From: Vitis vinifera
Taxonomy: Eukaryota > Streptophyta > Magnoliopsida > Vitales > Vitaceae
Assembly (NCBI RefSeq): GCF_030704535.1
Contig: NC_081818.1
Coordinates: 25,087,001 to 25,151,000 of the forward strand
Reading direction: 5' to 3'
Length of the DNA: 64,000 nucleotides
Position numbers and translations under genes: made by a program. The notes under the pieces are model-generated. The model searched no databases. It had not been told where the DNA came from and saw only the letters and a program-made list of their open reading frames with translations. Positions within the stretch are counted from its first letter, which is position 1, and each line of letters starts with the position of its first letter. This document shows positions 3,032 to 62,880 of this stretch, one piece after another.

Positions 3032-6000
3032 TCAGTTGCCGATGTCAAAGTATTTGGGATCTTCTGGGTAATGGTATTCCACGTTCAACTGCCATCAGCC
3101 AGCAACAATTCTCATTAGACAAACATTCAGTGCTGATATATTAAACAAACAGAGAGAGAGCGAGAGAGAGAGAGAGAGTTCAATAAATTTTTTCCTTCTT
3201 TTTTTTCCTTTTTGTTTGGCAATAGGCTTCAAGATACACAAATTCTGTATAGAAAATGCAAAAGAATCCCCAATCCAGCCTTTTGTGGGCAAGGCACCCT
3301 TTCATGTTTTGAAACATTTTGACAGGTTCTGAGCAGGTTACTTCCATTGCATTTCTAAGGCTTCAGGACCATGGCCATCAGTAATAGCATCATTTGGCCA
3401 TTCAGCTAATTGAGATAGCTGAGAGACCAAGTGAGTAATAACTAATTGCTACCAAAGCTGGTGCCATTAAAATTGTTTCAGAACTAAGCACTATTTAACC
3501 TAATATTAACCTACTTAAAATATGGTTCAGTTTGCAGAACCATCAACAGCTCTTATTAAAGCAATTATGAGAAAAAGAAAGCCTGAAAGCCCATCAAGAT
3601 GTGTAACAAAAATATATTTAAATTTACAGCATTTGACATTTCCTGTCTGAGGCATTAACATCATAAATATCAGATGCAGATTTTGGAACCATGTAAAAAA
3701 GCAACACAAAACCATGTTATATGTGAAGCTAGAACCACATACCTTGCCCTCATCAGCATCCGAATGTCGTTGAGGGAATACAACCCTCAAATCATTGTAT
3801 AAATAGAATCTCCTCTCTCCTTCAATGTCTAAGCAAGTTCTTTGTGGTATTGATAGAGGATCAGATTTGCATCTCTGAATGGATCTAGAACATTTCTTCG
3901 AAGGGCATAGAAAGCGGAGATGAAGAGCGTACCGCAGAGCACCAGCACTGGTAGAATTCTCATTGGCTTTCGAACAACCATGGGCAGATTTTCTGTCATT
4001 TTCATTGCATGCATCCCCCCAGCTCTCACTTTCAAGAGTTCTTGAGGATTCAGCACTGTTGCATCCCTCCTCAAGCAAAAGGGAAGGTACATCAATCCTC
4101 CCTGCATCCCGTGTATCTATTGAGTGAACTAAATCTGAACCATCCCTTCCTTCGAAACTAGTACTTGGTTCTATAGATCTCATAGCATTAAGCATGTCAA
4201 ATTCATATGAAGTAGTGATTTCCCTGCTATTCTCTACTTGATGGCTTTTATCTGAGGATGAAATCAACTTGTCTTTGACTTTCATGTCATGATCTCTCTG
4301 TTCACCATTCACCCGTGGAGAAGTTGGGCAAGAAGATCCTATAGTAACCTTTTGGCGCAAGAATGTCTAATTTAATTTGAACAGAAAAATGGCATCATAA
4401 TCATCATTAGAATATTGCTAGAAAAAAAAAAACGAATACTTCAAAACAGAAATAGTCCATTTAGTAATGAGCAGGTTGAAAATAAAGAAATCTCTTCATT
4501 TCTTTTCCCAAAGTAGTAATGCATCTGCATTGATGATCTATTAGTGATATCTCCCTATACCAATTTTTATGTAAAAGCTAAATGAAGATAATTCCAACAT
4601 CTTAAGAAAAAGGTCAGGACACCAATCTGTCTAACAAATAAAGCATAGAAAACAATCCAGTAATCATTCCAACTTACTTTGGTACCACTTGGCATGTCAC
4701 TCAAATCATAGTTGCAAAAGAACGAGTGTAGGGGTGTCTTCTCTGGATTGCTGAGAACCTGGGAAAAGATGATAATAAAAAATGAAAACAGAATAGGAGG
4801 AGAGATCCATGAGCCCAAAAATGTTACACCTGGATTGACTGGAGTGTTAAAACTCAATGGGTATTTAAACCATGGAAAGAGAAATCATGCAATTTGTTCT
4901 ACAATACATCACATGGTACCGGGAATATTGTCTACAGACTCCTTTGATGAATTTTCTGGACTCATTTTTAGCTAGAAGTTAGAGAAGTTCAGGGGTTAAT
5001 GTATTTTTCTGTTTCTTGCTGCCTTGCATGTGTCCAGAGTCCTTGAACACACTATATTCTTACCTTTAAATAAATTTGTTCACTCATGATTCTCCACAAA
5101 TTCAAATAACAAAGAAAAGCAACTCCAAAAACAACTAAAAAGATTCTTCTCATTGGCTGAAATGGTCTTTTTGCCATGTTATTAGTAGTAATAGTAGTGA
5201 TAATATTAATCAAATTGATTGGCCATTTGAATGGCCAAAACTCAAGAGGGATGCAATGGACAAAAAAGGGTCATTTTTTCGTTTTTTGATAAGTAGACAA
5301 AAAAACTGGTTTTCTTATTCACCTAAGCTCCTATCAAGGTTCACTCACTTGAAGCATGATTAAACTAAAATGAAACAGAGTTCCACAACTCGAACTGTCA
5401 AAATCGAAGGTTAAAGAAACATGAAAGAAAGCTTAAAGCTAGAGTATATTTAAAATAGTAACTACTCGGTTGTGAGAGAGAAGAAACAAAATACCAGTTG
5501 TATGCGCCCTTTCATAGGTATCCGCAGGTGACTCTTAGCAGTTTGTGAATCATCATTGCTAAGGCCTCTATTCAGTTTTTGGGCCCTGAACCTTTTTGAT
5601 AACAAATTTCCTGCAAGATCTATGGATGCATAATACAATAAGTAGCTATCTCCATCAACACTGGATACTGAAAATGGGAGTTTCCGTGATTTTGGTGAGA
5701 AGTCCCCTCCAGTAACACTTAGAACAGCTAAAAATCCATCAATTCTCTACAAAAATAAGGCACCAACAATAGGCAGTTGAAAGAAAAATCAGATATCTTT
5801 GGAGAGAGATTCTCAAAGATTAAATAAGGAACTATCTACAGAAAAGGCTATCTATATTACACAACACAAACACTAACCTGATTGAATTTTCCATATGAGA
5901 ACCGACCAGACAATAGGGACTCCTCAAATGAACCAACTAAGGACCTCCTAACAGGAAGTCTGCTCAAATTTCTAACTAACTTCATATATTGAGGTGTGGG

Positions 6001-7143
6001 TGCTGAATTTTGTGACAGAGGCCAACTTATGCCAGTACTTTCCAAGGAAGATGAGTAAAACTCTTTGTGCAAAAGCTCAACACCATCAAATGATTTTCTT
6101 GTCGTCCTAAACACCTCTTCTTCCTGGGTGAAGAAAATGTCTGATACAGCTCCATTGAGCGACTTTTCCATATTCTTTAAAGTTAAATAATCACTGTGCA
6201 TTTCTTCTGTGACATTCCTGCACCCTCCTGCAGTTCTCATTCTTTCAGAAAATTTTGGACCAAGAGGAGACAATGATAGAGGAGGCGAGACCACCTTTTT
6301 TGGGGATATCATTATTGACCCAGTTTTGGATCTTACCTTACTTGATTCTCTAAAGTGATTAAGTTCAGGTGAAGATACACAAGTATTGTGATCCTGGTTC
6401 AGGCCATCAGTTTGAAAAATGGAAGTTGCTCTACTATTATCATAAAAAATGTTATTGTGTTCTGAGCAATTAGATATAGACCAGATTGGTGAGGTGAAAT
6501 TCTTCTTGCATCCAATATTTGCCTTCTTATGATCTTGCGCCATCACACCCCCAAAGCCACCATTAAAAGCAGGGGTATTCATCGAAAAATTGCTGCAACC
6601 AATGTCGAGAGGATCACCATTAAACTGTTCTGGAAAAAGCATACCATTCAAAGGTGACAGCATCCGCTTCCTGGCTAATGACCCACTGGACTTGCTTTCA
6701 TTAACTGTGCTACCAACCGGAGCAGTGGAATGGCCATGGTCAACTGAATCTCCCTCCAATCCAGTACTCATAGAATTCATTCCACCCGATTCAAACCCCA
6801 CAATCCTAGAAACAGGAGTCTGAATATCCCGTCTGTGTTTAGGAGGGAACCAAGCTACTTCATCCATAGAACTTATCTTCAGAACAGTGGATGTAACATC
6901 CACAGTCCCTTTCTGTTCAAACAAATCATCTGAAATCTTTGGGGGCTCCAAGGAGCTTTTCCTCTGGAAATCTCCTGAAGGAGAGCATATGGAATCCCCA
7001 CCCATTCTGCTTGGACTTCCTCGAGACATTCCATCCAAATCACATGTACTCAAACCAGCAAATTGTGGACTTTGCAAAAATGTACTAATCGATTCTGCAA
7101 CTTCCTCAGCAGTTTTAATTGATGATACTTGTGGCAAGCCCAT
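3032..7143 (-). CDS. Atos/FAM214-like protein (DUF4210, 'chromosome segregation during meiosis' family)
   Basis: Five coding exons: 7143-5878, 5746-5495, 4758-4678, 4366-3743 and 3088-3032. All junctions are GT-AG in phase 0, giving 759 aa. The N-terminal 390 residues are Ser-rich and probably disordered. The conserved part starts near residue 395 ([19 protein letters not shown]), continues across exons 1-2 ([11 protein letters not shown], then [20 protein letters not shown]), and includes [19 protein letters not shown] and [11 protein letters not shown]. The C-terminal block has [37 protein letters not shown] and [14 protein letters not shown]. These match the Atos conserved domain and its C-terminal partner domain, found from animals to plants. 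In flies Atossa is a nuclear regulator; the plant role is unknown. The start at 7143 is the first Met of the long open exon. Exons 3 (81 bp) and 5 (57 bp) are short, and automated annotation may miss them. Confidence 0.88.
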
Positions 7144-9776: not shown

Positions 9777-12494
9777 CTAAAATGGCCTTGCAGCCTCTTC
9801 CATCATCTTCTTTAGTCTGGTCAGTCTTTGTATCTCTTTGAGAACCTGAAGTCATTACAAAAGCAAGGCGAAAGTGTATTTAGTTAGTTTAGTTTGATAA
9901 TTAATTAGTGATCACTTTGTAGATGATGTCATTTACCTCCATAGCCATGTCTTCAGTGGTTACTGCATCCAAGTCATCGTAACCTAATTGGGAAGCTACT
10001 TCTGCTAAGAACAAGAAGTAGTTAACACCAACAGCAACAATGGTTCCGGACAGGGTTCCCTAGAAGAACGATGGGGACTTACTTTGGAGTGAAACTGATG
10101 CATCCGCTGTTGCATATCCACCTTTCATTTCTTCATACACCACAGCTAGCTGAGCAAACACCTGGTTATCACCAGTCTGGAGCAGTGATTAAATAATCAG
10201 GCAGGTTCAAGATTGCTAGAAACAAGGATGCTTATTGGCTAAAAGGTTGATCAGGCAGGCTAACTCAATATTTGCAAGGGAACCTCTGACCTCAGAATAA
10301 GATTCTGCAGTAGATAATTCTGTTACAGGAATTTGAACCCCTTCTTCTATCATGTTCTTGGCAACCATTTCTATCGGTACATCAATCCATATTGAAATTC
10401 CATGTCTCAGAAGTGCCCTATCATTGTTAAGAGAGGATGGTTGAGGATAAGAGAACTGATTTTGACCATAACAAATGACTTGACGAAGCATTAGAAACAG
10501 AAAAACCAGAAACCGGTTTCCATACAGATTAGTTGAGCTCTGAACTAAACCATCTCCAGCACAAACCACCAGCCGACCCATGGATGATAACTGTTTCAAT
10601 ACTTCAGTCTGAAAGAAAATGTCAGTTTAAAGTTAGCTGCTGGATTAGCTAGCATATCAATGAAGCAGTTTGTATAACAGATAGCCTTAATTTCTAGGGT
10701 TGAGTGTGCAGCATTGGCATCATGCTGCCTCTAAAGGCAGATTGGGGTTTGCTCTTTTGGTTCAGCTGCTTCTCAAATTGATTAGCCCCAATAAGAACCA
10801 GTTTGACAATCCCAGTCCCTAGCCCTGTACATAAGTAAGCAGACACACAAGCAACAGGATAAAAGTCCAAAAGAATCACCTCAGAGTCATGAAATCCCTT
10901 CTCATCTTGCTCTTTTAAAGACTTGGCAGCAGATTCACCACCGCAAGCTTCCTCAACCAAACTATCACTGCAAGCAGAGAGTAAAAGTACAAATTTTTTG
11001 CTATCATATCCACAGCTACAAGATCTTCTTCCAGGCTTTCAACAATAAGACGAACAAACCTGTCAAAGTGATAATATCGTAGTGCATCTGCTAGAAGTTT
11101 CCCCACATTGGTTTTAATGGTGCTGTTCATCCCTTTACATTGAAAAATCTTTGTATCATACATATAAGCATTCATACCCAAAACCCAAGTAGAAACACAT
11201 CAATTAGGATGCAGCAATGCCTACCCACAAGAAATATGGATGTCCCTTTCAGTACAGGGGATATCTCCATTGCCTTCTTCTGAATTAAAACAGAACAGTT
11301 AAAACGAGCACTTCAAAATATAGAAGCTCATCAAGCTCAAGTTATTTCTCAATCCATGGGCATTTTCTAAAGCATAAGCAAAACCTTAAAACACAAATGT
11401 GAACTTAGGTTATGTTTGTTCCCGAAAAGTACTAAGGAAAGAAAAAAAAATGTGAAAGAAAATTATTTTCTCATATTTGATTGTCCTACGGAAATATCAA
11501 AGAATTAAAAGAGTTAGAGACTTATACATTTTTAAATGATTTAATCTTTATATTGATGAGTTAAAATAAGTGAAATAGGTTTGAAATAGCAAATAAAAAT
11601 AATTAAGACTTTAAATCTATTTTCTTCTACTTTTCCTCTCTATTTTCTTTCCCTTACATTTTCCCTCAAATTTTCTAGGAACCAAACGTAACCTTAATTT
11701 GAGTAGAGATGGAATGGGATCTCACCTTGACTGCAAGAGAGAGATCAACGTCAACAACTTTTGTTGCTGAAACTGAACACATTCAAGCAAGAAATCATTG
11801 AAACCACCCAAAATTGTAGCAGATATCAAGTTGTTTAACAACACTAACTAGAAGAGAATCGAGATAGATAACTAACACAGAAAAAATAAATGGGGAAACA
11901 AACAAACAGATACAAAAAATTCTGGTACCATGTTAAGATATTGGCACCCCAACGGCATAAACTCCAGGGAAGGGGCATACAATGGATGTCAAACTAACAG
12001 TACCATGGGCAAAGAGTGGATAACATCAGGAAGGTTCGAAAAATATGTGTCCTTGGATTATTCTACTCTCATGCTCATATTTCAAAGGAGCAGCCATAGG
12101 TTGGCTACTTGCATAATTGAATTGTAATCGCAAACCAAGAAATTTCACCAAACATTTGGCATGAAACCCAGAAATGTTTCCAGTAAAGAAAAGCTTAGCG
12201 GATCAGTGTCTTGTTCTACGAATAAGACAATAGTTATCATAATAAACTGAATCAAGAAGGAAGATGGATGAACTCACTGGAAGAAGCGCCATCAGGAAGA
12301 GAGAAAGTGATGGAGAGGGATTTGGGGGAGGAGGTAAGAGGAGGAACACAGGGACAGAGAGAGGGCAGAAGTTGATGAAGAGGATGGCGCTTGGGTTTAG
12401 GAGCCTCGAGCAAGGACCGTGGGAATCTCGGCGTCACCACCTGAAAATGACGATGAAAGACATGAAACGCTCTGGTTGAGGCTAGTGTCGCCAT
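9777..12494 (-). CDS. SKL1: Shikimate kinase-like protein 1, chloroplastic (non-catalytic)
   Basis: Ten exons: 12494-12278, 11772-11726, 11279-11225, 11132-11060, 10967-10880, 10608-10526, 10417-10291, 10161-10083, 10001-9937 and 9845-9777. All have GT-AG borders, giving 300 aa. The first 70 residues are rich in Ser/Pro/Arg/His and poor in acids, as in a plastid transit peptide. The core follows the shikimate kinase fold (FLVGMNSTIKTNVGKLLADA, YYHFDSDSLVEEACGG, GRLVVCAGDG, LLRHGISIWIDVP). The P-loop GxxGxGK[ST] of true shikimate kinases is replaced (GMNSTIKTNVGK), so ATP binding as in the enzyme is unlikely. The C-terminus ends KKMMEEAARPF, as in Arabidopsis SKL1, which has lost kinase activity and is needed for chloroplast biogenesis. 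A MITE fills most of intron 2. The call is secure. Confidence 0.93.
11408..11693. mobile_element. MITE in SKL1 intron 2
   Basis: Terminal inverted repeats of about 24 bp: GGTTATGTTTGTTCCCGAAA at the left and, reverse-complemented, GGTTACGTTTGGTTCCTAGA at the right. The trinucleotide TTA flanks both ends, consistent with a PIF/Harbinger-type 3-bp target duplication, though an hAT origin cannot be excluded. The element is about 286 bp, AT-rich and non-coding. It takes up most of the 446-bp intron and leaves the splice sites intact. Confidence 0.7.
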
Positions 12495-12670: not shown

Positions 12671-12722
<52 letters not shown>

Positions 12723-15588: not shown

Positions 15589-18500
15589 CTAGTAGGAGGA
15601 GATAATGAATGTCATCTCCTCATTACCTCTGATTTGACCAGACTGAGAGGCCACTTCAGAGATCGTTGATGTTGGCTTACTATTTGAGAGAGAAATAGGT
15701 GTCAATGGTGGAGAGCCAACTTCTTCAGCCTTGTCTGGATTTTGAGAAGATTCCAGAACCTTGGTCACATGTAATGCCGTAGCTCTCTGACTGCTTGATG
15801 GTATGGAGTAGCTCCTCGGGACAGGAGGAGTTGGCAGTGGAGAGGCTGCATTTGATGCCATTGAAGAGGTTTTACTTGTTGCAGAAAGCTCATTTCTGGA
15901 TATCAAAGGAGCAGAATGGCCAACCAAACCGGGAAATCTAGCTGGCTTGGTTGCCAAGCTGACAGGAGGCCTAGGGAGCTCATGGAGCTCATTTATTCTG
16001 GGAGAAGATACAAGAGGAGGAGAAGCACTTGGAGATATTTTTGGGGACGAAGAAGGCTGAGGAATTGGAACACGAGAAAGCAATCCAGAAACTAGTTGGG
16101 GAAGTTCGGCAGGGGCAATGGGACCACTGGAAGATAGAACAGGCTTTGTTGACCATGGCTTACCTGTCAATGGACCTGAAAAAGCTAGTCTTTTGACCTT
16201 TTTAGTATCAGATGTGTTCAGTGTATCAAGCTGTGGAAGTGAAAGTCCCTCAGCCAGAGGAGGGGGCAGTCGGATGGCAGCATTATTACTGTTGCTCTCT
16301 TTGAGAACTGATTGTGCTTCTGATATGGTTGAACCTGACATGTGATCATCTCCAGAATCTTTCTCATGCTTCTTTGGCTCTAAGGGGGAAGAATGCCACA
16401 AATTGCGGGTGCCTCCATGGAGGCTTGTTGGCCTTGTTCGGGGAACCGAATTGCTTGTTCTTGAAGGAGTTGAACTCTTTGCACCAACTGGTATGGGTAG
16501 CACATACGTGTGCAACTTCCGTGTGGATGATTGTGTTCTTATCCTTTCAGATGGATCACTCTTCTCTGCAATTATTGGAGCAGAATAACTGCCTGCTCTA
16601 GGTTCCCTACTGAAACCCTGGAGATCCCCATGGTTTTTTTCTGGATTTAACTGCAGATGGAGAGACTGGGTTAAGAAGCTGAAGAATAGTTCACATTTGT
16701 GAATTTAAAGAACAGATCCTTGAAGGTTTGCAACTGAGAGGCTATGAAACTAAACATGATAGTACAAAATGGTCATGGCTCATTTCTATTCGGAACATTG
16801 AAAATAATTAGTGAATTTGAGATGCAGTTTCTGCTTGTCATAGCATGAAGTTGGGTAATGGATAAGCAAATGAGTGAAAAATAAAACTGGGCTATAAGCA
16901 CTGAAAAACTTAATCTTGAATTATAAGTGTTAAATAAGAAGCAAGAAACTTGTTGCTATCATCTGAAATTTTAAGTGTTTCACTTAGTAAAAAATTAGCG
17001 TTTCTTTTATATATATATAAGTAAAGGGACGTATATGTATTAAAAAGAGGCGCCAAAATGGCGACTCAAGGTATACATGATAGATACACCCCACCCCCAC
17101 ACAGCTAAAACAAAAAAGGCTGCCAAAATGGAGGGTATGAAAACATCCCCACCCTCAATGAGAGTCCAACCAATCAATGAAACTAATTAGCATCGAAGGA
17201 CCATCCTTTATGAACAACTTAGTCTTTGACCAAAGAAAACAAACAAAAGAACTCTTTAGTCTTTGGATGGAAAGCACGTCATTTTCAAAAGCAATTCTAT
17301 ACCTTGCCTTCCCAACTGTCCAGAAGATGCACAAGGGGCCTACTCTCCAAACTTCCCTTCTCTTCTTACCCACATAGGACCCATCCCAACCCAAAAGTGT
17401 TGCCTTAACTGAAGATGGCAGCACCTAAGGCACCCCAAAAATAGTGAAGAACATCACCCATAAAACCCTTGTGTGGACCAGCATTTTTCACATGTGTCCC
17501 CACTTAACAGCAAGACTCACTTTTTCTTAACACAATAGAGGAGGATGTGATCTATAGATTCTTCGTGCATTTGGCAAAAATAACATCTACTCTTCTTGCA
17601 TTTGGTAAAAAATTAGCATTATAATAGTTTATTATTCAAATTTGTTGCCACACCCTTAATATGACATTCTTTAATATTTTTTAGTAATATTATATTAGTA
17701 AATACCTGATTACACAAAATGTTAAATAGACAGTATCCTTAAAATAGTTTAAAATGTATCAATTTGATACAAAACTTATTCTTATATTCACACGTGAGAT
17801 TCTAAAATCAAAAGTTATGTCACATGTGTACTTGAAAATGAGAAATTTCTCAATTTGAAATTATAATTCAAATTAAAGACCCAAACTTCTTCATTGTAAA
17901 GATCCCTAACTAAATAAAAGTCAAAAGACTCAAAATCAAATCCAAGTAAGATTCTCAAAGACACCAGCAAGACATTAAGTTTTATTCCTAGATTCTTTAA
18001 TGGAGAAGGCCAAAAAATTATAATACAAATTATTTATTCTATGTAAATATACCCTGAAGTATTCAATCAAATAAATTTTTTTTTCCTTGCATGACACCAA
18101 ATATTATTACTGGCATTGTTCAAACTTAACGATCCATTGATAAAAAGCTTTTAGCTTCTTTGTTAACAAAATTTATTGCAAGAAAAAAAATTTTATTAAC
18201 AAAATTTATTGCAAGAATGAGTGAATATTAAAAAGAATTTAATTTTCATGGGGAAAATAGAATTTACAAGTGATATAACTTTAGAAATCACTTACAGTGT
18301 TTTGCATAAGTGCTAGTCAGGTCTCTATTACTTAATGCATTAAGTGGTTTTGAAGTTGGATCTAGTCATAAGTGACAATCGATTCAAATTAGCGGGATCC
18401 ACTGATCTTTTACATTTCAGCACTTGATATTGTTATCAAAGAACATCTAAGGTGGTGTTTTTTTTTTTGGCTTTTTGCTGAAAGCAATTTAGTTTTAGAA

Positions 18501-21500
18501 TTTAGGTTGTTTGTTTTTCTACTTTTTCATGACTTATTATAAATTTTTTACTGAATAGAAAAAGCCAAAATATGTAGCTTTTTCTAAATAGAAAAAATAA
18601 CATATTGGTTTTTTTTACTTTTTAATACTTAATAGAAATAAAATACTATAAAAACAAACAACCTAATATTTAATACTATTAAGCATTAAGGTTCTATTTA
18701 GAATTAAGTAAAAAAACAAACACCACCTAAATCTATTATCCAAGGGTTATACACGATTTTACCTCCACCGTTTCCACCGTTGAAGCTTGGGGAAAAGAAA
18801 GGTCTGATTGATCCAACTGCAGAGCAAGCCACCATGTTATAGACACAAATATAAGGAATGGCAGAAGTACAAATACAGCATAAGAAATTAGTCACTGTCT
18901 AAAAGCTCAGCAAAATGATGATCACTGTTTATCAAAAAACAAATTTCCTATAGCATTAGTTCCTTACCTCCATAGAATTTCTTGTTGCAGACACAACTTC
19001 AATCCCCCTCTTATTTTGTCTATAGTCAAAACTCAATTCCCCACCCTCACTTGCATCATAGCCATTCTCGCCATCATCTTCTCCATCTTCCACATCATCA
19101 TCTTCAAGTCCACTGAATTGGTAATCAATGTGTTGTCGTTCTGCAACCACTCGTAAGTGTTGCTCAACTGCCTCAAGAGATTTAAGTCCCTTTCGAAAGA
19201 AATTCAACTGTTCAAATAGCAGGACAAAATTGAGAATGGAAAGAATATGAACATCCATCCCATTGAGAAAAATAAGATGTTTTGACATTTGAAATTTGTG
19301 TTAAGGTAGAAACAAAACCTGAGCCGCATGATGACGAGCTGCCTGTGTTAGAAGACTTCGGGACTGCCCTTGTTTCAGAGATTTCAACCGAAAAACGCAT
19401 AGGGTTGCCTCATCATTAAATTCATCATGAGCTGCTGTCAATTGCTGCAAACTTTCTCCTTTCCCACTTTTTGACCTTCCTTTTTCTCTCTGTTGCGCCT
19501 TCATGTATTCATACACGTTTCTGAAGATCATATACCCAATTAAGAAGAAATTTACTTCAACCAAAGGCAAAATATCTTAAAATAGAAAGGTTCAGACCTC
19601 TTTTCATCACACTGCCGCTTCATTTCCTACACAAGCAAACAAAAGAAAGGCCTCAGAATAATTGGCACCAATAATTGTATAAATGCCTATGTATTTCACC
19701 CCAAAAAAAAAAAAAGGAAAAACTTAAAAATGAACTCCCTGCTTTGATGACATGAGGAAAAGGAAAAACAAAGGAGGTGGGAAGACACTGTTTGAATCCA
19801 TGGGTCCTATCCATTTCACATTTATATTAAAAATAATAATAATTCTAATACAGCACAAATTTCAAAGATTCCATTGCTGTCTAGTAAGGAAAATAAGAAC
19901 TTTTTTATTTTCAGAAGACACAAAAACATGTCCATAAACACAAGCACATTTAAAAAATATGTCCAAAACATGGGCGCTTTTTAAAAAACATCAAATGCTG
20001 TTTTTTCATTTTTGGGGGAAAAAAAAATGAAAGCACTTCATAAAACTTGACCATTAACTGAAAATGACTAGTTTTTTGGCATGCTCATCATTTTCATTTC
20101 TGCAAATAGGAAAATTTTCTAAGATGTCATTTCCACACCTGCTACCAAATGGGCCCTACATTTTCAAACATTTTTTTTGTTGTTGACACAAGATAAAATT
20201 TATTGTCTTTTCAAATCAAAACATGTCATGGTAATTTTCAAATTAAGGCAACTACATAAATTACCATAAGGAGACATTTTTCACTTTCTAAAAATTCAGG
20301 AAAAATTATGCTGGTACAGTTTCTCGACTCAATTAGTATTATGCGTTCAAGTAAAACCACCACAAATTAGAAACCATGACAAAGATGATACATAGGACAA
20401 CAGCATGCACATTAGAATAGAAGATCAAAAGCTCTAGGGATACAATAAGACCAAATATAAACCAGTTTGAATAACAGAATATGGGTCATGATTATCATGG
20501 CATCCAATTGGGACTTATGAGAAAATATATGATTATGATATGCTAAAAAAAATAAAGGAACCATATAGACAAACCTCTACTGTCCGAAGTTCATTGAGAA
20601 GAGACTCTGATGGGTTTGTAATTGTCTGGATAATATGAGACCGCTGAAGGACAAAAAACATGTAATTACTAGGTTAAAGTAAAAGGCAATATTCTAAAAT
20701 GACTGTGTGTTTAAAGTTGACTGCATAACAATCCACACCCACATAGCTATCAACAAGTTTCTGAAGATCAAACTGCACTTTTCCCATCATTAACAAAACT
20801 TTGCCTGCAAATAAATACAAAGCGTTATAGTACCAGTTGAACATCCCAAATTTTATATGATGATTAAAATTTGAATAAGATGCTTGCTCCTAAATAGAGG
20901 CAGAATTAATGAAAACCTCCCGCACACTCCAAAACGACCCCCACCCTCAACACACACACACACACACGAGAAAAAAAAAATGAAAACCAACCAAACACAC
21001 AAAAGAAAAATAATGAAGCCAAAGCAAAATTTTTGCTTTTCTCAACAAATATCAAGTAATGATCTCGTTAATTTAGTAATTTACAGCACATGAAACTGAA
21101 CAATCTCAAATGCATTTATGGCTAAGAAGTAGGCAGCCTCATATTCTTAACAGGAGATCACCTTCATCACTGTAGTTATGGCATGTTTAATGGCACATAC
21201 ACCCAAACAACCTGCCAGGGGCCACACATGAGGGCTTTGTGCTTTGGCTAAAAGATGCATGCCAAATCTTAATTAGGTAATTTTACCCAGGTGTTTTAAG
21301 AAATTAAACATCAAGTGAGATACACATGGAAACCATCATAAGTTTGTAAGGTTTGTTAATCAAGAGTTAGGTCATGCATGCATTAAATAAGGTATATCAA
21401 TCCTTACCACTTTCTTCATCATCATTAATTGAGGTTTTTTCCACTAGACAAGAGCCCATTTCCCCCAATGACACTGAAAATTCTGCAAGCATAGCTGGAG

Positions 21501-23944
21501 TTAAATGGCAAACTTCTTCCATATCCTAATGAAAGAGGAAGCAAGGGGGAGAAGACATGTGCATGCACATGCGCATGAGCGAGAAAGATCCATGCCCTAA
21601 GAACCTATCTACTAACTTGATAATCAATATAAATTCCTGCAGATGAACTTAAATTGAATTTGTACCATATGCACTGTTTGTTGTAGCAGCAGCAGCAGAA
21701 AGCAAGCTATCATAGCAATTTCTCATTTCTTGCATATCCTGTGAAAGCAGGGAACAGAAAGAAAATAAATAGTAATACTTTTAAGGGCCTAGGTCAATAG
21801 CATAAAAACCAATATTTACCAAGTTTTCAAAAGTCATTAACTAAATGAAAGAAAATGATAGCCCATAAGAACACAAAAGATCAATTAATTTCCATTTCAC
21901 AGAACTCAATGGAGTCAGTTATAGTGATCATACTACTGGAAAACTATGCTAAACTTGCTCAATTAGGTGAAAGTTCTGAATTAGATTGTGCTGCTTTGAA
22001 ATCTGATGGAGTTTTCTTTACCTGTTCAAGGGGTTAGTTTACTTCTGCACATGCTTCATTTGCTCTACTCCGTTACTTTGGACACATTTGGCATGGTGCT
22101 TTAACCTTGTTCAGAGACACTTATACTGGTATTGACCCCACAGATTTGGATAATCAAGTGGAATTTATATCATTCCAAAAACTTGAGAATCCAACTACAA
22201 GAAGCCAAGTTGTCTGAAACAAAATTTCCTTAATATCTTTCATGTTTATTTTCTTTTTGTAAGTTAATTTAGGGTACCAAATAAAAATTTTGACTTGTAT
22301 CTTTTCCTTTTTCTGACTCTGTTATCTAATTTGGTGAATTCCTTTGAACCTCAATTACCTATTTCAATCTTTTTCCTTTTTGAAATGATTATGGGGATGA
22401 AAGGCTCTCAACTCCAAAATTCAAATAGTGAACAGCATTCTGAAACTATTAATGAAAAGTGAAAACCTTGCTAAATTCGATGGTTAATATCCCAGTGGTG
22501 CTCTTTTCCTACTCTCCCTTCCACAAGTATTTGAATTTACATAATCTGTATAATCAAAGGACGTAACAGTGAAATTTAGTCTATACAACACTGTTCTTCC
22601 ACACACATAACACACAAAGGAATAATATTAAGAAGAAAACCAGGGCATGAAAAAGTTTCCTAACAGTGATTTAGGCAATGACGTGCAGGCCATTGCCCAG
22701 TATTAATATTTGCTCTTTCTTGGCCAATTGCCAAATTTAGCATATTTTCTACTTCTCATCTTACAGATATATGTGCTACAAAATTGAAATAATCAAAGAC
22801 AACAATGACACTCTAGTGAACATTTATTTTGATCTGCTTAATCAAAACAGTCAGATTTTCTCTTTTTCTTTTCTGTTTCTTTTTTTTTTTTTTTTAGATT
22901 TTTGATAAGCTAGAGACTTTCTCTTTCGTCATTCATTATACCTAGCAAGCTTCAGGAAAGTATAGAAATACTCAACCTCTAGAACAAGATGCTGTAAAAT
23001 TCATTTTAAGTCATTGAATAAAAATGAATTTATGCTGGAACTAGAATGAAACACTGCCCACGTTACCAAATGACCCTAATGCTCTAACTCTTCTTTTCCT
23101 GAAAGTTTAATCCTAATCAAATAACAATAAAAAATTCTTACACTCTATTTGGAAGGCAAACACTGTAAGGTAAAGGAAAGAAAAACTGAGCTTAATAAAT
23201 TCTTTTAATTCTTTGTCCAACTCAATTAAGGGTTTGAAAATAAATGAAGTTTCAAATGATCTTTTTACATTTTATTTTCCTTTGTATCGTCCACTGCAAC
23301 CCAAAAAAAAAAAAATTAAGATTCCTTCTGATTTTTTTCCTTTTCCTGATGGTGTTGGGATCCAGATTAGCGTAACTGAATTCACATGTTGCTTGACAAA
23401 CTGATTCTACTCCAACTTTAAATGTTTGATTTAAGAAAATTTTCAGCAAGTAATTATAATTAACTTTGACGGTTTTTTTTTTAGAATGAATTCCTAGAAA
23501 TGGATACCCAAAAAGGTTATGCTTCTGTTGTATTGAGTACAGAGTCCCCAATAAATGAGAGATCAATCTTTAAAGAGGAAATCAGATGGAGATAACTACT
23601 CATACATGAAAATAAGTTCACTTCATTGAAACTCAGACTAGGATAGTGCACCCAAACTCGTTTCCCAATTTTACGAATCAGAGAAGCTTCAAGCCTTCAA
23701 CCATCGTCACCACGAATTTACAGAAATAACACTAAACGCAAGCTCAAAATATTAATACATCAACATCGAGCTCTGTTTCAGACGCCAAAAATTGAGAATA
23801 CCGAGAGCAGACACAGTAAGGTTGGAGTACCTGCGAGGCCTGGGCTAGCTCATCCACGTGCGCCGAAAGTTGAGCATCTCTTTTCTCCTTGGAAGCATCG
23901 TTCTTTGGCAGCGCAAATTTCCGAAGCTTTCCCAGAGACTTCAT
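15589..23944 (-). CDS. BAR-domain, Pro/Ser-rich protein (plant 'hydroxyproline-rich glycoprotein family' type)
   Basis: Ten exons: 23944-23831, 21738-21666, 21482-21408, 20804-20743, 20643-20575, 19626-19598, 19520-19319, 19207-18968, 18816-18763 and 16650-15589. Frames join without a break to give 659 aa. Residues about 1-260 look like a BAR/IMD-type helical membrane-binding dimer: charged coiled helices, [40 protein letters not shown] and a following acidic loop. The last exon (353 residues) is low-complexity, rich in Pro and Ser (for example [17 protein letters not shown]), with no recognisable domain. Arabidopsis relatives At3g26910, At5g41100 and At2g33490 are labelled hydroxyproline-rich glycoproteins, but there is no signal peptide, so a cytosolic membrane-sculpting role is more likely (inference). 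Introns 1 and 9 exceed 2 kb and hold inserted DNA. Confidence 0.88.
16987..17617 (-). mobile_element. 5'-truncated LINE in BAR-gene intron 9
   Basis: A 605-bp insert (17000-17604) is bounded by perfect 13-bp direct repeats GTAAAAAATTAGC (16987-16999 and 17605-17617), a clean target-site duplication. On the minus strand it encodes the end of a LINE ORF2: a zinc-knuckle-like [18 protein letters not shown], then, after frame breaks, 89 codons at 17424-17155 including [20 protein letters not shown] and SFIDWLDSH. This tail is typical of LINEs common in grapevine. The 3' end (left) is an AT-repeat tail. The insert has the same orientation as the host gene, is broken in frame and cannot encode an enzyme. 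Confidence 0.85.
18450..18728. mobile_element. MITE next to BAR exon 9
   Basis: Termini AGGTGGTGTTT (left) and AAACACCACCT (right) are inverted repeats. The inner 30-40 bp also pair imperfectly (GGTTGTTTGTTTTT against AAAAACAAACAACC). Flanks AACATCTA and AAATCTA agree with one gap, which suits an 8-bp hAT-type target duplication. The element is 279 bp, AT-rich and non-coding. Its edge lies only 34 bp from the exon 9 donor site at 18762. Confidence 0.72.
21870..22405 (+). other. Nuclear plastid DNA insert (NUPT): psbB 3' end and psbB-psbT spacer
   Basis: Plus-strand translation recovers the C-terminus of CP47 (psbB). NGVSYSD lies near 21903, then [20 protein letters not shown], and after a stop [36 protein letters not shown] and [14 protein letters not shown]. 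Plastid CP47 has the same order with [20 protein letters not shown] and [14 protein letters not shown]. The following sequence to about 22405 reads like the plastid psbB-psbT spacer (from memory). The copy has many substitutions and an in-frame stop, so it is an old, non-functional transfer. It lies inside BAR-gene intron 1, in opposite orientation. The outer limits are approximate. Confidence 0.88.
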
Positions 23945-40838: not shown

Positions 40839-40878
<40 letters not shown>

Positions 40879-41674: not shown

Positions 41675-43926
41675 TCAGGAATGTATCAACTCTGGTATGA
41701 GCTTAAGAAGAAATGAGAGCTCCCGCTGTGAGAACTGAGGCTTTGATTTCACCTGCATCTGTCCTACCCCCTCCGGCAAGCTCTCCTCATCACCCTCCTT
41801 GGATGGCTTCATCAAATCTGAAACTGCCTCCGTTATCTCTTTAACCAAATCAACTATCACTCCCTCCACACCCATCAAATGTTGCATGTAAACCGCCTCT
41901 GCTACATTACTGAAACACCAAATAATTCAACCAGGCATAAGTCAATTGTGCGATACCCTACATGGGGAAATGAATAAGCAACTGATAGAAAAAATCAGCA
42001 ACTTACTTCAATTGACCGTATGTCAGGAGAGAAAGTTTGGACTCTTTGATCTTAGTTACAGCCGCTGGATTTCTAAAGACTGCTTTAACTTGTGAGACAA
42101 TCCCTTGCAACCCACCCTCCAAACATAGCTTTACAGCCTCCTCTAAGGAATTTCTTCTAACATCGTAGTAAACCTCGGTCCCTCCATTAGTCAGGAAGAA
42201 AACCTGGTTTCAGTCAATGGTGGCCATCACCCATCAGTATTAACAATCCAACTTTTTTCAACAAGGACAATGAAGAGGGGATTTGTATAAAGTCCTTACA
42301 GGGTAGGAGCTCTGCAACTTTCTGACAAGCTGAGCTGCATCCGGCTGGAAAGTGGAGAAGATTATTGGCCTGTCTTTGGCGTACTGAAACACAACCTGGA
42401 CCACAGAATTCAAGAGAAATTAATGAGCATGGATACAAAATCCCATGAGCCCACTTGACTACACAAATGCATGCTGGGGTTGTTTGAGTAATTGTTTTCA
42501 CCTCCACCATGGCTTGAAGAACATGGGTGAGATACTCTTGCTCATAGACAATGTTGTCATCGAACTTCAACTCTATATTGAAGCCCAGAGAAGGCTCCAC
42601 CTTCTCAAAGGCTTCTTTCAATGTACACAAACAGTCATCTGCTTCAACATTCCAGTTCACAATTCTCCCATCTTTGGTCTTTCTCAACATTGACTTTCCC
42701 ACCTGCATGTTTTCCATGATCAGTCCAATCATTCCACAGAACAGAAAGAGAGCGATTGAGAGGGAAAGAGAGAGAAAGTAAACCACCTTTCCAGGCTCTC
42801 TTTGGGGGCCATAGCGAAGAAAATCAGAGAGGAGCAACTCTGTTACTCGCTTCTCGTACACAACACCCTGAAAATACAATTCCCAACAACATTAATCAAA
42901 TTCCCCAACATAAAAACAAAATTAAAAGAAAAGAAAAAGATGGGATGGAGATTCTTACGTTATCTTCGGAGAAGATGAAGTTGTCGTGAAAAATAACAGG
43001 GATGTCATCTTTCGTCACCTACAAAATTCACATTCATTTTTTTACTTTCCCGTCTAAGGGTCTTGCCTCACCACCTTACTTCTATTGTTTGAAACGCAAG
43101 AACTAAAATAACAAAGACAACCCCCAAGGAAGAAAAAAAAGCCCCAGGCAAAATAAACACATCAGTACCTTGGAATGCAAGAAAATTCTACAAATTATGA
43201 AACAAAAATAAATAAAGAAACAAAAGATCGATTAATCAGATCATTGGAGGTGACCTTGATTTTAGGGCAAAGAATCCAAGATTTACCCTCCCTAAAAAAG
43301 GTGCCCAGGTCTAGAGCGAGCTAAAGATATATGAAATTACTAAAAATACCCTGGGAGACAGGTGTCCAGAGATTTAATCTTAACCATGAATGCAGACAAA
43401 ATAAAGATTACGCGGCGAGCGTACGACGCACCGACAGCACGACGTGTTTCCTAGTCGATGGATACACAGATCTTTCCGGTGACCGGGAAACTCTCGGAGG
43501 TGAAAAAGAGGACCGAATAAGACGGAATGGCCGGGAACCTCACCTGAACGTCAAACTCGACGAAATCGACGGAGAATTCGGCGGCAGTGTTGAAGGAGAG
43601 GATGGAGTTCTCTTTAATGGCCTTCATTCTCCTATCTGAAGATTGCAACATGTTCATGCCGCTCCCTCTGTGCCCAATCACCAGAAACTTTGGAATTCTG
43701 AACGATGACCGACCTACGTCAACGCCTGAAACCGAAAACCAGATCAGCAACAACAACCAAGAAAGAAAAAAAGAAAAGATAATCCGACGGAGACAAAAAA
43801 GGAAATTATAAAGAAAAACAAGAAATCACCAGCTGAAAAGCGCGTGGAGTAGAGGCCAAGAGAGGCGTTCTCCGGCACCTGATCGAGACAGGGGACGTCG
43901 GAGACGTGAACTGCCTTGAGAGCCAT
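41675..43926 (-). CDS. GDPD2: Glycerophosphodiester phosphodiesterase, GDPD1/2/3 type
   Basis: Eight exons: 43926-43830, 43725-43544, 43018-42959, 42867-42787, 42702-42502, 42395-42300, 42203-42007 and 41909-41675, giving 382 aa. It hydrolyses glycerophosphodiesters to sn-glycerol-3-phosphate and an alcohol, a step in phospholipid turnover and phosphate recycling. The GDPD barrel motifs are present: FLVIGHRGSGMNML (first catalytic His), ENSILSFNTAAEFSVDFVEF with metal-binding acids, DDIPVIFHDNFIF (second His), GFNIELKFDD and RPIIFSTFQPDAAQLV. No secretory signal is seen; the N-terminal 35 residues could be a weak plastid-targeting peptide, as reported for Arabidopsis GDPD1. Length suits the Arabidopsis cytosolic/plastid clade (about 360-380 aa). 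Position beside DRB, DHHC and NAC genes matches At5g41080 (GDPD2) from memory. The promoter carries two P1BS elements. Confidence 0.93.
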
Positions 43927-50540: not shown

Positions 50541-50598
50541 GAGCGCAGCCCACCCAAGTATGACTCGGGTCCACACCTCTAAGGGATGGGTTTTGTTT

Positions 50599-50604: not shown

Positions 50605-50711
50605 CGAGAAAGCGGGTTTAGGGGACCCGGGCACGTTGGCGTGTGGGTTTAAACGTTAGGGTTTTGGGAGACATCATCAAAAGGAAACCTCACCACGCAT
50701 CAGCCACTACC

Positions 50712-54167: not shown

Positions 54168-54199
<32 letters not shown>

Positions 54200-55078: not shown

Positions 55079-56735
55079 TCACAACTGTAGCTTGTTGAAC
55101 TCAGAACTGAGTTGAGTGGAGTATAGCTCTGGCTTGTTGAACTTTAAGCCGGCTCCTGTATGTGCGGGGATTGAAGAAGAAGCACTCAAGGCTGATGGAG
55201 AAGCTTCATTCCTTGTTGGATGGTTTGATGGTGGGAGTCTCATTGGAGGAGGTGGTGCTGCACAGACTGGGATCACTGACCTGATTTGAACTGCTGGGGC
55301 AATCCTGTGTGGTTGGAACCCTCCGGTGCCCATGGTCCTGGGAATGTGAATACCTGCGGAACCCTTCATTGCTGATGGTGTTGGATTCCCAAAAGGATTA
55401 TTCTTGATATGGGTTTGCTCATGTGGTTGATGAGGGCTATCAGGCAGTGAAGTGTTTAGCTTCCCAGCATTCGGCAAGGGAAATGGCCGGTAGATAGAGT
55501 TTGCCCCATAGACACTGCTCGCATTTGCATTGCTGGGACACTCTTTTTCGGTGGGCTTTCTGATGAGATTTGATTTCCCATCAAGCCATTCTTCCTCATC
55601 CCTTTGATGCTCTTCCAACAGAGTTGGTACCTCTGGCATTTTAACTTGTGACCTGCCGATGGCTTGTACTGGGATAGGCCTGGTTGATGGGTAGAGAGAT
55701 AGAGTGTCTCTGGGTGAAATTGGTGGTAAGATCTTTGAAGCTGTTCTAGGTGGAGGTGGAGGAAGAAGAGCTACAAAGCAGTTTTGATTTTGTGCAGTAC
55801 CACCTTCTGGGACAGAATCCATTAATAGATCCATAGGCCTCCACTTTTGAAACTGTTGGGAGTTATTAGAAGTGGATGAAGAACCAGAACCACCATGACC
55901 CCTCACCATTCTTCTTCTTGCTTGATTCTGATCCCACCTCCTGATTGGTCTGCTTTCATCTTTGGACCTGAAATTTGAGAGAACCCTTGCCACCACGACC
56001 TGTTCTTCACGAGACTCTGCTTCCTTACTTAAATGGGATAATGAACCCAAGTTTGGCACTGCAGCGACATACACATTGATTGGTGATGCGGAAATACAAA
56101 CATAGCAGCATTCGAGGAAAAATCCAAAGAAGGGAAAATCAGAATTTACCTCTTTTCAAGGCAGACCAAGCTGCTATTGCAGCATTCTTTTCAGCTTGCT
56201 TCTTTGTTTTGGCTGACTCACCTGTAAAATTCATACCAGCTAGCTCTACTGTACAAGTGAAAACAGGGACATGGCCAGGACCTGATCTCACCGTGGTGTA
56301 AACTGGAAGGTTCAAGCCAGCTCTATGAGCAGTTTCTTGGAGGAGGTTTTTGTAGACTCCAGTCTCATCCTTTCAGTTCACAAGCAAAGAAGAGAGAAAA
56401 AAACAAACAGAAGATAAATGGGTGTTCTTTAAGCCCTTTAACCAATCGAGATAGACATTTGCTGGAAGTAATCGAGTGTTGAAACTTACAAGAACTCTGG
56501 CAGTTAAAGACCTTGAAGGACCCCTTGTGGAGAGGACATTGAGAGCCACTTCAGCAGCTGCATGCTCTGCCTGCCTCAACGTGGTGCAGTAACTGGGGCT
56601 CTCAAAGATCTCACCATTGAAGTTCACAGAAGCTTTGAATCTCGGTGCATGATCAGGTCCTTCTCTGATGCAGGCATAAGAAGGGAGGTTGAAACAGCTT
56701 CTCTGGGCAAGTTCTTGCAGCTGATTCTTAAACAT
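55079..56735 (-). CDS. DRB5: Double-stranded RNA-binding protein, DRB2/3/5 group
   Basis: Three exons: 56735-56490, 56369-56150 and 56058-55079, giving 481 aa. dsRBD1 is at about residues 1-70 (MFKNQLQELAQRSCFNLPSY, ATLRQAEHAAAEVAL-like helix, here TTLRQAEHAAAEVALNVLS). dsRBD2 is at about 83-155 (DETGVYKNLLQETAHRAGLN, AKTKKQAEKNAAIAAWSALK). Each has the usual first helix, GPGH loop and KKxAEK-type helix. After them comes EQVVVARVLSNFR and a basic RRWDQNQARRRM, then a long Pro/Ser-rich tail (LLPPPPPRTASKILPP) without a known domain. In Arabidopsis DRB2, DRB3 and DRB5 act in translational repression by small RNAs and antiviral defence. Neighbour genes match those of DRB5 (At5g41070) and DRB3 (At3g26932), from memory. 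The start codon aligns with MYKNQLQELAQRS of that family. Confidence 0.93.
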
Positions 56736-59129: not shown

Positions 59130-62100
59130 TCACAGCTTTGGGTCTGCATTCCGGTTACCAGACATCAAGCTGCCACTGCTACTCCCACCCACCCGGTTGG
59201 GTTCTCCCACTCTAGCTGCCAAAGCCAGAACTTCAGGTGACATTTCCCAGCTTCCACTTTTCCTTCCCCAACTGGAACGCCTGGGATGTACTCCACCACC
59301 TAGCTCCCCCATGTCCTCTATTGTAGTCCTTACATCCGGGGATATTTCACCTAAACCACCATTATCCTTAATGTTCAGGCTGTCGTTGTTGTAAATTTGC
59401 CCTTCACAATGATCTGGCCCAGCCCCCACATCTCCCCATGCTGCTGCTTTTCTGCCCATTTCAATGTCTTCCACAGCTTTCCCCATGTTTGGGCTGATAA
59501 AACCCCCACCCACTGATCTACCTGGTAATCCAGGTTCCTTTGGTACCTTTGCCCGGAAATTGTTTTTAGATGGGGAAATGCTGGTGCAAAATATCTCCTT
59601 GAAGTTCTGCACCACTCCTTTGTTGTAGGGGTTGGCTCGTCGATCATATCGGTATCTGAAATTCTCATAGGTAGTCTGCAAAAGAATGGAATAGAGAAGG
59701 AAAATTCTGCTGTTAGGCACAATATTTTGACCTAAAATTTCGGCTACAGAATCATAGCATTAGGAAGATGAGCCCGTTACCTGATTTGTACTGATCAGAT
59801 ATAAATGGAATGCAGTTAGGCCACCGACAAACCACACTGATATGAAGGTGTAAACTATTAGCACAATGGAGGCAGGGGTCTTGATCATTGCTTTCCAAAT
59901 CGTTGTCTCCTCTGAATCCATGATCCTCTTAATATAGACCCAGCAGAACCCAAACACATATATACAAAGAAGAGTCGTCGAGAAGACAAACATGAAGAAA
60001 AATCGATAATTACGCTGCACCCAGAATTGTGAAAGTGTTCAGATTCATGCATTGCCCACAAATTCAAGCACATGCATCATTCCTATCATGTTGGTGAAGA
60101 TGACAACTGGAAAAATCGTCAAATCAACAGTAATAAATCTTCCACACTAAGTATTTTAGGTAATGTCAACTATAAGAAACTTAATAGCCAGAAATTCTGC
60201 ATCTGTTAGTGACACTTGGATTTTTCATGAAGTCAAAACATGCTTCTTTTCAGTACAGACTAGCAACCATGTCCAGATGGGTTCAAGCACATAGGAGCTA
60301 GAGGTAATTCAAGAATTAGACTAACTTGAAATAAAGCATTTTTTTTTTTTTTCCTGCTCCAAAGTCTCCTTGATACAATTTAGAGCACTCTATTTTATGC
60401 ATACCATCAAGCACAGCAGCTTGAGCCCATTTCATCAACTTTCTCCTTTTTGATGGGGTCAATTATCACTCTTCAGTTAATTATCATCCTCAGTATGAAG
60501 AGGAATTTCTTAATGCACACCATCATGAAAACAATAAATGCACAGATATAACCATCAAATCCGCATCCATGGTATAATGAGTCACTACCCACCCCATGAA
60601 TGGTGTTGAGTTTTGTAAATGTTACTTCTTTGGATATAGGCTATACATCCAATATGTCATAAGGTCTAAAATAATTTATCTCTTACCAGTCCAATACACT
60701 GCCCAACCCAAGGGCAGTGGTGATCAAATCGTTCGACGCAGTTATTACATATGGAACAGTGTGAGCAGCGAGGAGGTCTATAAAGCATGCAGGTATCACA
60801 ATACTTGATCTTGACAGTGACCCCATTGACCTCTACTTCTTTAATGCGAGGCAGACGTAACTGTGGTGTTTGGCCACCAACACCTTCTGCACTTCCATCA
60901 TAACCTTCAGGCTCTGGAGGGTGGGCATTGCGAGGAATTATACCAGGATCTCTTCCAGAGGTTAGCAGTAGAAGAACTAAAACCTGAGAAATTGAACATC
61001 TCTATCAGCTGAGACTTGATATCATATTATATTTTATTAATATTTCTCTAAGAGGTCCACATACAAAACTCATAAACATGGATGGGGAAGGTTATTCATG
61101 CTCAACTTAGAGACAAATTTGCCTGTGCTACTGTTGAGGGATAATGGCAACTGGGAAGTATTTTGGCACACTACTCTTTTATAGTAAGCAGCCCTCTCCC
61201 TTGGCAATCTACCATCCAAGAAACAGACAAATCACAATGCATCCTAGTTGTTAATCTGGGCATTTCATGTCCATATTGCTATGCCAGATATACAGTTGAC
61301 AATTTTTTAAGTATTTGATCATTGTATAAAATGGCCAAATCAACATCACAGATGCATGGATTGACTATAATTTTGACATCGGGATCAATGTATATGAGGA
61401 CTGCCATGCTCCAAAAAGGTGGGCAAACAAATACATCCCAGTTGTCCTCCAACATTATCATACGGAGTAATTTGCGGTTTCTGTTTCCATCAAGTAAATG
61501 TCAGCTTCTTCCATATACTTAATGCATGGCTACATCTGGATATCAGAAAGCAATTGCTGGTCATGTCAATTGCCTTCTCAATTAGTTATCAACCAAATGT
61601 GCACCTATACAGACACGATTTGTCACACCCCAAATTGAGTAAAAACACTTGGCCAAATAAAAATGGAGAATGAACATTTTGAAGAAGAAAGGTCATTGAC
61701 ATTGCTTAAAAGTATAAAAATAAAAAAGGGCACCAGGTGAGTATATCCAACTTCCTGGAGTCCAGGTTGTCCATGGTCATTGTTAGAATCTTCCTTAGAG
61801 CAGCTCACTTTCCTGGATGGGATTCACCAGGAAAAAAAAAAAAATCACCAACTCAAACCCTCATCAAGCACACATGCACAAGCTAACTAATATTATATAC
61901 AACAAACTACACGATCATGATCTCCAATCAATGTCAACCAAATGAAACCCATGTTTGTAAAGCGATGTCAATATGCTCTCAAGAGAGTGGACAACCCTGT
62001 CCTACAGTTAAAGGAACTAAGGTCTAGAATTCCTAAAAAAAAAGGGTAAATTGAACAAACCACACCAAAATTGAATGTACTTAGGTAGTGAACCCACAAG

Positions 62101-62880
62101 AACTAAATGTTGCCAATTTTTATAAAGTGAATAAATAATAACGTTTCAAATTCATTCCACGACCACCACTACAATATCTCTCTTCCCCTCCAAGCAATCT
62201 AGTCACTACAGAAATTCTCTTAAATGGCTCACACCCATGAGTGCAGCCATTGATTTTCCTTGAATATGCCCACCTTATCAGTTGAATTCCTCTCATCTTG
62301 GCACAAGGATATCCAACACCTTGGCCTCTGAAATTCTAATAACATCCATATGTACTTTTGTAATAGACTTAGTTACTTCACAAAAGAACTTTACAGCATT
62401 AATAACTGATAGTACTTAATGTGTCCCCACCAGAGATCTTACATCAGGTCCAGATATAGCACATCTGAAGTGGAGCTGCAGTGTCCTTTAACATGGGTTA
62501 AAACACTTTTGACAACTTCTAGTCTCAGTTAGTTGTTCATACCCAATAAGAAAGCCATGCACAAGATATGCTTTCATTAGTAAAACTAAATAATAAGCCA
62601 TTGTGGAAGCTACCTTCACCAGTCAAAATTGGAACAAAAAAATGTAAGAGAAAAAAATAAAATCTCTAACAGCTAAAGATAGGAAAGGAGAACTCACATA
62701 AAAAGTGAATACAACAGCAACAACCATTATTGATATTCCCAAGTGATGAGGATAATCATCCATCAGTTTTCTGGCAACAAAGACACAGAAAACCGTAACA
62801 GGAGCAACAATAAGGAATATGGTCAGCCCCAGAGATCTAACATCGGGTCCAAATATAAGCCTCCCCTGAAGAAAAAATAT
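59130..62880 (-). CDS. DHHC-type protein S-acyltransferase (5' exon outside the window)
   Basis: Four exons are visible: 62880-62698, 60983-60687, 60014-59781 and 59675-59130, all phase 0, encoding 419 residues to the stop. The enzyme transfers palmitate to protein cysteines at endomembranes or plasma membrane. The first visible exon ([20 protein letters not shown]) carries TM1-TM2. The second has the Cys-rich domain [20 protein letters not shown] and the catalytic DHHC in [15 protein letters not shown]. The third holds TM3-TM4 ([33 protein letters not shown]). The fourth begins with the TTxE motif ([20 protein letters not shown]) and ends in a long Gly/Ser-rich tail. Family members start with about 20-30 residues ending in YQxWKGSN; that exon was not found up to 64000. 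Relatives: Arabidopsis At5g41060 and At3g26935. Confidence 0.93.

What the first reader, a model, noticed from the sequence alone, without database searches (positions are those of the whole stretch)
3032..62880. Conserved gene block shared with two Arabidopsis segments
Reading right to left, the order is DHHC, DRB, GDPD, NAC, BAR/HRGP, SKL1, Atos, all on one strand. From memory, Arabidopsis At5g41060-At5g41110 keeps DHHC, DRB5, GDPD2, NAC095, HRGP and Atos-like genes, while At3g26890-At3g26935 keeps Atos, SKL1, HRGP, DRB3 and DHHC. The window looks like the unfractionated ancestor of both. That helps to assign orthology for the NAC and DRB genes.
Basis: partly seen in the sequence, partly recalled or inferred. 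Interest (0 to 1): 0.7.

Follow-up and report, generated by a model that had tools for sequence, protein, structure and literature searches.

The report
Plant gene block collinear with Arabidopsis
This plant DNA carries, in one row and on one strand, seven genes whose relatives appear to lie in the same order in two duplicated pieces of the Arabidopsis genome; that is ordinary inherited gene order, but it gives useful landmarks for matching genes between species.

Summary
Gene models of the minus strand and Pfam show DHHC, two-dsRBD DRB, GDPD, NAC, BAR/proline-rich, shikimate-kinase-like and Atos genes, in that order right to left, all on the minus strand. The shikimate-kinase-like gene is SKL1: it carries the SKL1 motif LALLRHG[I/V]S. 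The DRB's second dsRBD is nearer DRB3 than DRB2 (57/69 against 51/69); its first is not (61/72 against 64/72). Published locus names support the recalled Arabidopsis order for 4 of 6 genes in the chromosome 5 segment (At5g41060 PAT6, 41070 DRB5, 41080 GDPD, 41090 ANAC095) and 3 of 5 in the chromosome 3 segment (At3g26900 SKL1, 26932 DRB3, 26935 PAT7). The HRGP and Atos loci could not be checked. No Arabidopsis proteome was available, so best hits were not measured. 'Unfractionated ancestor' overstates it: this is a living genome of unknown species and duplication history, with an unlisted eighth gene inside the block. It is an ordinary conserved block. Its best use is as a positional anchor for ANAC095, whose orthology differs between family surveys.

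The parts
59130..62880 (-). DHHC-type protein S-acyltransferase gene (exons 62880 or 62865-62698, 60983-60687, 60014-59781, 59675-59130; first coding exon not found, possibly beyond 64000)
   Evidence: Pfam DHHC 1.3e-40; splice sites; joined frame open; no first exon found
55079..56735 (-). DRB3/5-like double-stranded RNA-binding protein gene (exons 56735-56490, 56369-56150, 56058-55079), 481 aa
   Evidence: Pfam dsrm, 2 stretches; best PDB match is the second dsRBD of DRB3; identities; length
41675..43926 (-). Glycerophosphodiester phosphodiesterase gene, single GDPD domain, 8 exons joined partly by hand, 382 aa
   Evidence: Pfam GDPD 1.3e-43; splice sites; joined frame open
33309..34262 (-). 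NAC transcription factor gene (exons 34262-34079, 33943-33687, 33593-33309), 241 aa
   Evidence: Pfam NAM 5e-38 on the corrected model; junction corrected
28870..30238 (-).
   Evidence: gene model; no Pfam family; first-exon coding score above all 706 overlapping control segments
15627..23944 (-). BAR-domain protein with a long proline/serine-rich tail (the 'HRGP'); ends approximate, exon 17424-17303 doubtful
   Evidence: Pfam BAR 1.3e-8; gene model; splice sites
9777..12494 (-). SKL1, shikimate kinase-like 1, 10 exons, 305 aa
   Evidence: Pfam SKI 1.1e-24; LALLRHGIS present and RPLL absent (motifs); AtSK2 is the best PDB match
3338..7143 (-). Atos-like ('meiosis chromosome segregation family') gene, 767 aa model
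   Evidence: Pfam Chromosome_seg 1.4e-18 and DUF4210 1.7e-4; gene model
422..817 (-). Single-exon gene with one C2H2 zinc finger and a C-terminal LDLTLRL, outside the reported block
   Evidence: open frame; one-exon model; two weak zf-C2H2 matches below Pfam's cut-off; coding score above all 712 overlapping control segments

Best explanation
The window is a stretch of a plant nuclear genome that has kept an ancestral gene order, DHHC - DRB3/5 - GDPD - NAC - (MGCQ gene) - BAR/HRGP - SKL1 - Atos. The Arabidopsis segments At5g41060-41110 and At3g26890-26935 are two duplicated descendants of the same ancestral stretch. After a whole-genome duplication in the Arabidopsis lineage (most likely alpha, recalled) each copy lost different genes: GDPD and NAC were kept on chromosome 5, SKL1 on chromosome 3, and DHHC and DRB (and by recall HRGP and Atos) on both. 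The order is kept by descent; nothing seen here suggests that the genes work together. Shown here: gene content, order and strand in the window; SKL1 identity; a DRB3-like second dsRBD. Supported by published locus names: 4 of 6 and 3 of 5 Arabidopsis positions. Inferred: common descent of the whole block, its timing, and which losses happened where.
For: Pfam domains and order. SKL1 motif LALLRHGIS, with SKL1 reported as never more than one copy in the plant species examined and as At3g26900. DRB second dsRBD 57/69 identical to DRB3 and 51/69 to DRB2, while DRB2 and DRB3 share 45/69. Locus names: PAT6 At5g41060 and PAT7 At3g26935; DRB5 At5g41070 and DRB3 At3g26932; At5g41080 in the GDPD family; ANAC095 At5g41090; four neighbouring locus numbers in the window's order. 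Rough chance expectation of four such neighbours in this order or its reverse in a shuffled genome: 1.7e-8 (NAC number 105, the other family sizes and the gene total recalled). One tomato gene is the best tomato match of both N. benthamiana Drb3 and Drb5, and another of both Drb2 genes, as expected if DRB3 and DRB5 split late in the Arabidopsis lineage.
Against: No Arabidopsis sequence beyond PDB chains could be aligned, so reciprocal best hits are untested; HRGP and Atos loci are recalled. First-dsRBD identity slightly favours DRB2 (64/72) over DRB3 (61/72). In cucumber the GDPD that clusters with AT3G02040 and AT5G41080 is reported collinear with AT3G02040 and not with AT5G41080. In cotton an At3g26890 match lies among genes unlike this block, though the table covers only expressed genes (15 of 38 detected) and I saw part of it. 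An extra gene interrupts the block.
Confidence: 0.85

Rival explanations
1. The block is homologous, but the window's own lineage has also been duplicated, so this is one of two or more copies and not the unduplicated state. (Compatible with the best explanation; it denies only 'unfractionated'.)
For: Many plant genomes have lineage-specific duplications (general knowledge). The window's own assembly could not be searched (none answered). The extra gene at 30238-28870 shows that content is not simply the sum of the two recalled Arabidopsis segments.
Against: All seven listed genes are present here, so this copy has lost none of the seven.
Confidence: 0.4
2. The seven genes stay together because they share regulation or function.
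For: Seven genes on one strand in one order in the window.
Against: By family (recalled functions) the products act in unrelated processes: protein acylation, RNA silencing, lipid breakdown, transcription, membrane shaping, plastid development. Several kb separate some of the genes.
Confidence: 0.03
3. The similarity to Arabidopsis is chance: common gene families that happen to be neighbours.
For: NAC and DHHC are large families (NAC 105; DHHC recalled).
Against: SKL1 was single copy in the plants examined. Four adjacent loci in order have a rough chance expectation of 1.7e-8 (mostly recalled family sizes).
Confidence: 0.01

Closest known systems
Arabidopsis segment At5g41060-At5g41110 (PAT6, DRB5, GDPD2, ANAC095, HRGP, Atos-like)
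   Same: Same family order for DHHC, DRB, GDPD, NAC by published locus names; the HRGP and Atos-like positions and the name GDPD2 are recalled
Arabidopsis segment At3g26890-At3g26935 (Atos-like, SKL1, HRGP, DRB3, PAT7)
   Same: Same relative order of SKL1, DRB, DHHC by published locus names; Atos and HRGP recalled
Fractionated whole-genome-duplication blocks of plants (general phenomenon, recalled)
   Same: An outgroup copy holds genes that are split between two duplicated segments
   Different: Nothing unusual seen apart from the unlisted interior gene

Membership tests
SKL1 (shikimate kinase-like 1) | LALLRHG[I/V]S (PGML) motif, highly conserved in SKL1 | tested here: met
   LALLRHGIS in the spliced model; motif from PMC2593004 section 10. 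The motif spans a splice junction that I set by hand with a weak donor (score -1.92); ALLRHGIS lies inside one exon.
SKL1 (shikimate kinase-like 1) | Loss of the RPLL catalytic motif of true shikimate kinases | tested here: met
   No RPLL in the 305-aa model; requirement from passages
SKL1 (shikimate kinase-like 1) | N-terminal chloroplast transit peptide | tested here: inconclusive
   N-terminal stretch before the kinase domain, rich in Ser, Pro and basic residues by eye; no transit-peptide predictor run
DRB3/DRB5 type double-stranded RNA-binding protein | Two N-terminal dsRBDs | tested here: met
   Pfam dsrm two stretches
DRB3/DRB5 type double-stranded RNA-binding protein | Closer to DRB3/5 than to DRB2 | tested here: inconclusive
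   Second dsRBD 57/69 to DRB3 against 51/69 to DRB2; first dsRBD 61/72 against 64/72; 154.6 against 109.9 bits for the second-domain chains, which differ in length. No tree; no DRB5 sequence on hand.
NAC095 orthologue | NAC domain and position next to a GDPD gene, with DRB and DHHC beyond it | tested here: met
   Pfam NAM 5e-38; window order; At5g41060-41090. On the other side an extra gene lies between NAC and BAR, and the Arabidopsis HRGP neighbour is recalled.
NAC095 orthologue | Groups with ANAC095 in a NAC tree | not testable with these tools
   No ANAC095 among the 4 PDB sequences matched and no plant proteome on hand
Collinear block with two Arabidopsis segments | Same gene order as At5g41060-41110 | tested here: inconclusive
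   4 of 6 loci confirmed by papers; 2 of 6 recalled only
Collinear block with two Arabidopsis segments | Same gene order as At3g26890-26935 | tested here: inconclusive
   3 of 5 loci confirmed by papers; At3g26890 named only 'unknown protein', At3g26910 in no library paper
Unduplicated outgroup state | No second collinear copy in the window's own genome | not testable with these tools
   The genome search was busy in all six tries

The most novel reading that the evidence does not exclude
ANAC095, which some surveys treat as unclassifiable or fast-evolving, is the strongly diverged positional descendant of an ordinary NAC gene that has sat between a GDPD and a BAR/HRGP gene since before Arabidopsis split from the window's lineage; after the Arabidopsis duplication the chromosome 3 copy was lost and the chromosome 5 copy diverged fast. 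The uncharacterised MGCQ gene next to it would be a further member of the ancestral block, lost from both Arabidopsis copies.
Probability: 0.5. Interest if true: 0.35.

Novelty: new member of a known kind. Interest (0 to 1): 0.25.

Why it matters
Conserved order with reciprocal losses is textbook plant genome evolution, so the pattern is no surprise. Its use is practical: SKL1 is a single-copy anchor in the plants examined, so neighbouring genes can be paired by position where sequence trees fail. That bears on ANAC095, for which a physic nut survey found no orthologue and which an amaranth survey calls possibly fast-evolving, while a cassava survey reports an orthologue, and on reading DRB3 and DRB5 as products of one duplication rather than two old lineages.

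Tried and rejected
Considered and rejected: chance neighbourhood (single-copy SKL1 and four adjacent loci in order make it unlikely); a functional gene cluster (unrelated functions). Transposon genes in the two largest gaps: I scanned 10 of the 27 open frames of at least 80 aa that lie wholly inside 44150-54950 and 34700-41600 (count); none reached a Pfam cut-off and 1 of 10 had a sub-threshold match, E 0.086. The other 17 and all shorter frames were not scanned, so transposon remnants are not excluded.

Led nowhere: tRNA and Rfam scans were empty. Paper searches for At5g41100, At5g41110 and At3g26910 found none. Tomato and poplar locus-prefix searches listed nothing that I could use as a neighbour of the block; I opened none of the papers new in those two lists. 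Searches for ANAC095 with synteny, DRB duplication and NAC095 with NAC083 gave the survey papers cited but no statement on this block. Passages of PMC7994812 (groups DRB2/3/5 together), PMC6209978 and PMC9820422 did not decide anything. The DHHC first exon was not found. The species was not identified.
Full report
What is in the window. The window looks like plant nuclear DNA (inference): intron-rich genes of plant families, with no tRNA and no Rfam match. I wrote a small splice-aware gene finder trained on the window's own long minus-strand open frames. With one set of settings it scored 580 on the minus strand, 89 on the plus strand and 17, 5 and 20 on three block shuffles; because of its training the strand comparison is biased. 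On the whole minus strand it returned 4 models that merged neighbouring genes, so I cut the strand into intervals by hand. Results varied with the intron penalty (two values tried), and junctions were then corrected by hand. Exon ends are therefore approximate where no splice site was clear.

Gene identities. Pfam gives: DHHC acyltransferase; DRB with two dsrm stretches; GDPD; NAC; BAR domain with a long proline/serine-rich tail; shikimate kinase fold; Atos-type protein (Chromosome_seg and DUF4210). Two more genes were not in the list: a gene at 30238-28870 whose product begins MGCQASR and has no Pfam family, and a one-exon C2H2 gene at 817-422 whose zinc-finger matches are below Pfam's cut-off. 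Their coding scores exceed every one of 706 and 712 control segments from three gaps; the controls overlap one another and include out-of-frame segments, so this is a lenient test.

Subfamily tests. The corrected shikimate-kinase-like model has 10 exons and 305 residues, contains LALLRHGIS and lacks RPLL. LALLRHG[I/V]S is given as highly conserved in SKL1 by PMC2593004 (section 10 read; other passages). The junction inside the motif was set by hand with a weak donor, but ALLRHGIS lies within one exon. The passages seen also mention an exon 10 of AtSKL1. Those authors found no plant species among those investigated with more than one SKL1, and name AtSKL1 At3g26900. For DRB, the second dsRBD is identical to Arabidopsis DRB3 at 57 of 69 positions and to DRB2 at 51 of 69; the first dsRBD at 61 and 64 of 72. 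So the second domain speaks for DRB3/5 and the first does not. In N. benthamiana both Drb3 and Drb5 match one tomato gene, and Drb2a and Drb2b another (PMC3610648, passages), which fits DRB3 and DRB5 being late duplicates in Arabidopsis.

Arabidopsis order. No Arabidopsis proteome was on hand. I therefore used locus numbers, which by convention (recalled) run along the chromosomes. Confirmed by papers, passages only: At5g41060 PAT6 and At3g26935 PAT7 (PMC4340681); At5g41070 DRB5 and At3g26932 DRB3; At5g41080 in the GDPD family (PMC13298316); At5g41090 ANAC095 (PMC4488383; also NAC95 in PMC3236301); At3g26900 SKL1. Not confirmed: At5g41100, At5g41110 and At3g26910 are in no paper of the library, and At3g26890 is 'unknown protein' in an apple paper (PMC5309832, passages). 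The strands of the Arabidopsis genes were not checked. A rough chance expectation for four adjacent genes of these families in this order or its reverse is 1.7e-8 (mostly recalled family sizes).

Results against. In cucumber the GDPD that clusters with AT3G02040 and AT5G41080 is reported collinear with AT3G02040 only, so the window GDPD could be matched to either. In cotton an At3g26890 match has different neighbours (PMC4889659, passages), though the table covers only genes detected as expressed, 15 of 38, and I saw part of it. A physic nut survey places ANAC095 among NAC genes whose orthologues were not found in physic nut (PMC4488383, section 18 part 1 read), and the poplar NAC paper PMC3017804 is not among the 25 papers, so its held text does not name At5g41090. 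An amaranth survey puts ANAC095 in a clade without strong subfamily assignment (PMC12618503, passage), while a cassava survey pairs it with MeNAC68 (PMC4552662, passages). ANAC095 is therefore unsettled in these surveys, which is where position could help.

Interpretation. Common descent of the block with both Arabidopsis segments, followed by duplication and different losses, is the best explanation. 'Unfractionated ancestor' should read 'a living relative that keeps all seven genes together'. Whether its own genome holds further copies could not be tested, because the genome search was busy in all six tries. The NAC looks to me like the ANAC083/VNI2 type in its first residues, but that is recalled and untested; in the PDB four NAC sequences match (rice NAC1, NAC92 and two of NAC19), which does not decide its group.

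Gaps between genes. The two largest gaps (44150-54950 and 34700-41600) hold tandem repeats and repeat pairs; 10 of their 27 open frames of at least 80 aa were scanned and none reached a Pfam cut-off.

Verdict. Interest is low to moderate, for use as an orthology anchor.

Noticed in passing
30238-28870 (-): Uncharacterised gene between NAC and BAR genes; acidic product starting MGC (possible lipid-modified N-terminus, inference) with no Pfam family.
   Followed up: partly
817-422 (-): Single-exon gene with one C2H2 finger ([14 protein letters not shown]) and C-terminal LDLTLRL, resembling SUPERMAN-type repressors (resemblance recalled).
   Followed up: partly
38387-38772: Minisatellite, about 8 copies of a 48-base unit with long open frames on both strands; no Pfam match for the 204-aa frame.
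   Followed up: partly
48644-49027 and 49509-49891: Direct repeat pair of about 384 bases, 80-84% alike, start-to-start 864-865 bases; could be a small LTR element or a partial tandem duplication.
   Followed up: no
15438-15644: 113-base tandem duplication (1.8 copies) across the modelled 3' end of the long BAR-gene exon.
   Followed up: no
36240-37043: AT-rich stretch with a 128-base tandem repeat and several inverted repeats.
   Followed up: no
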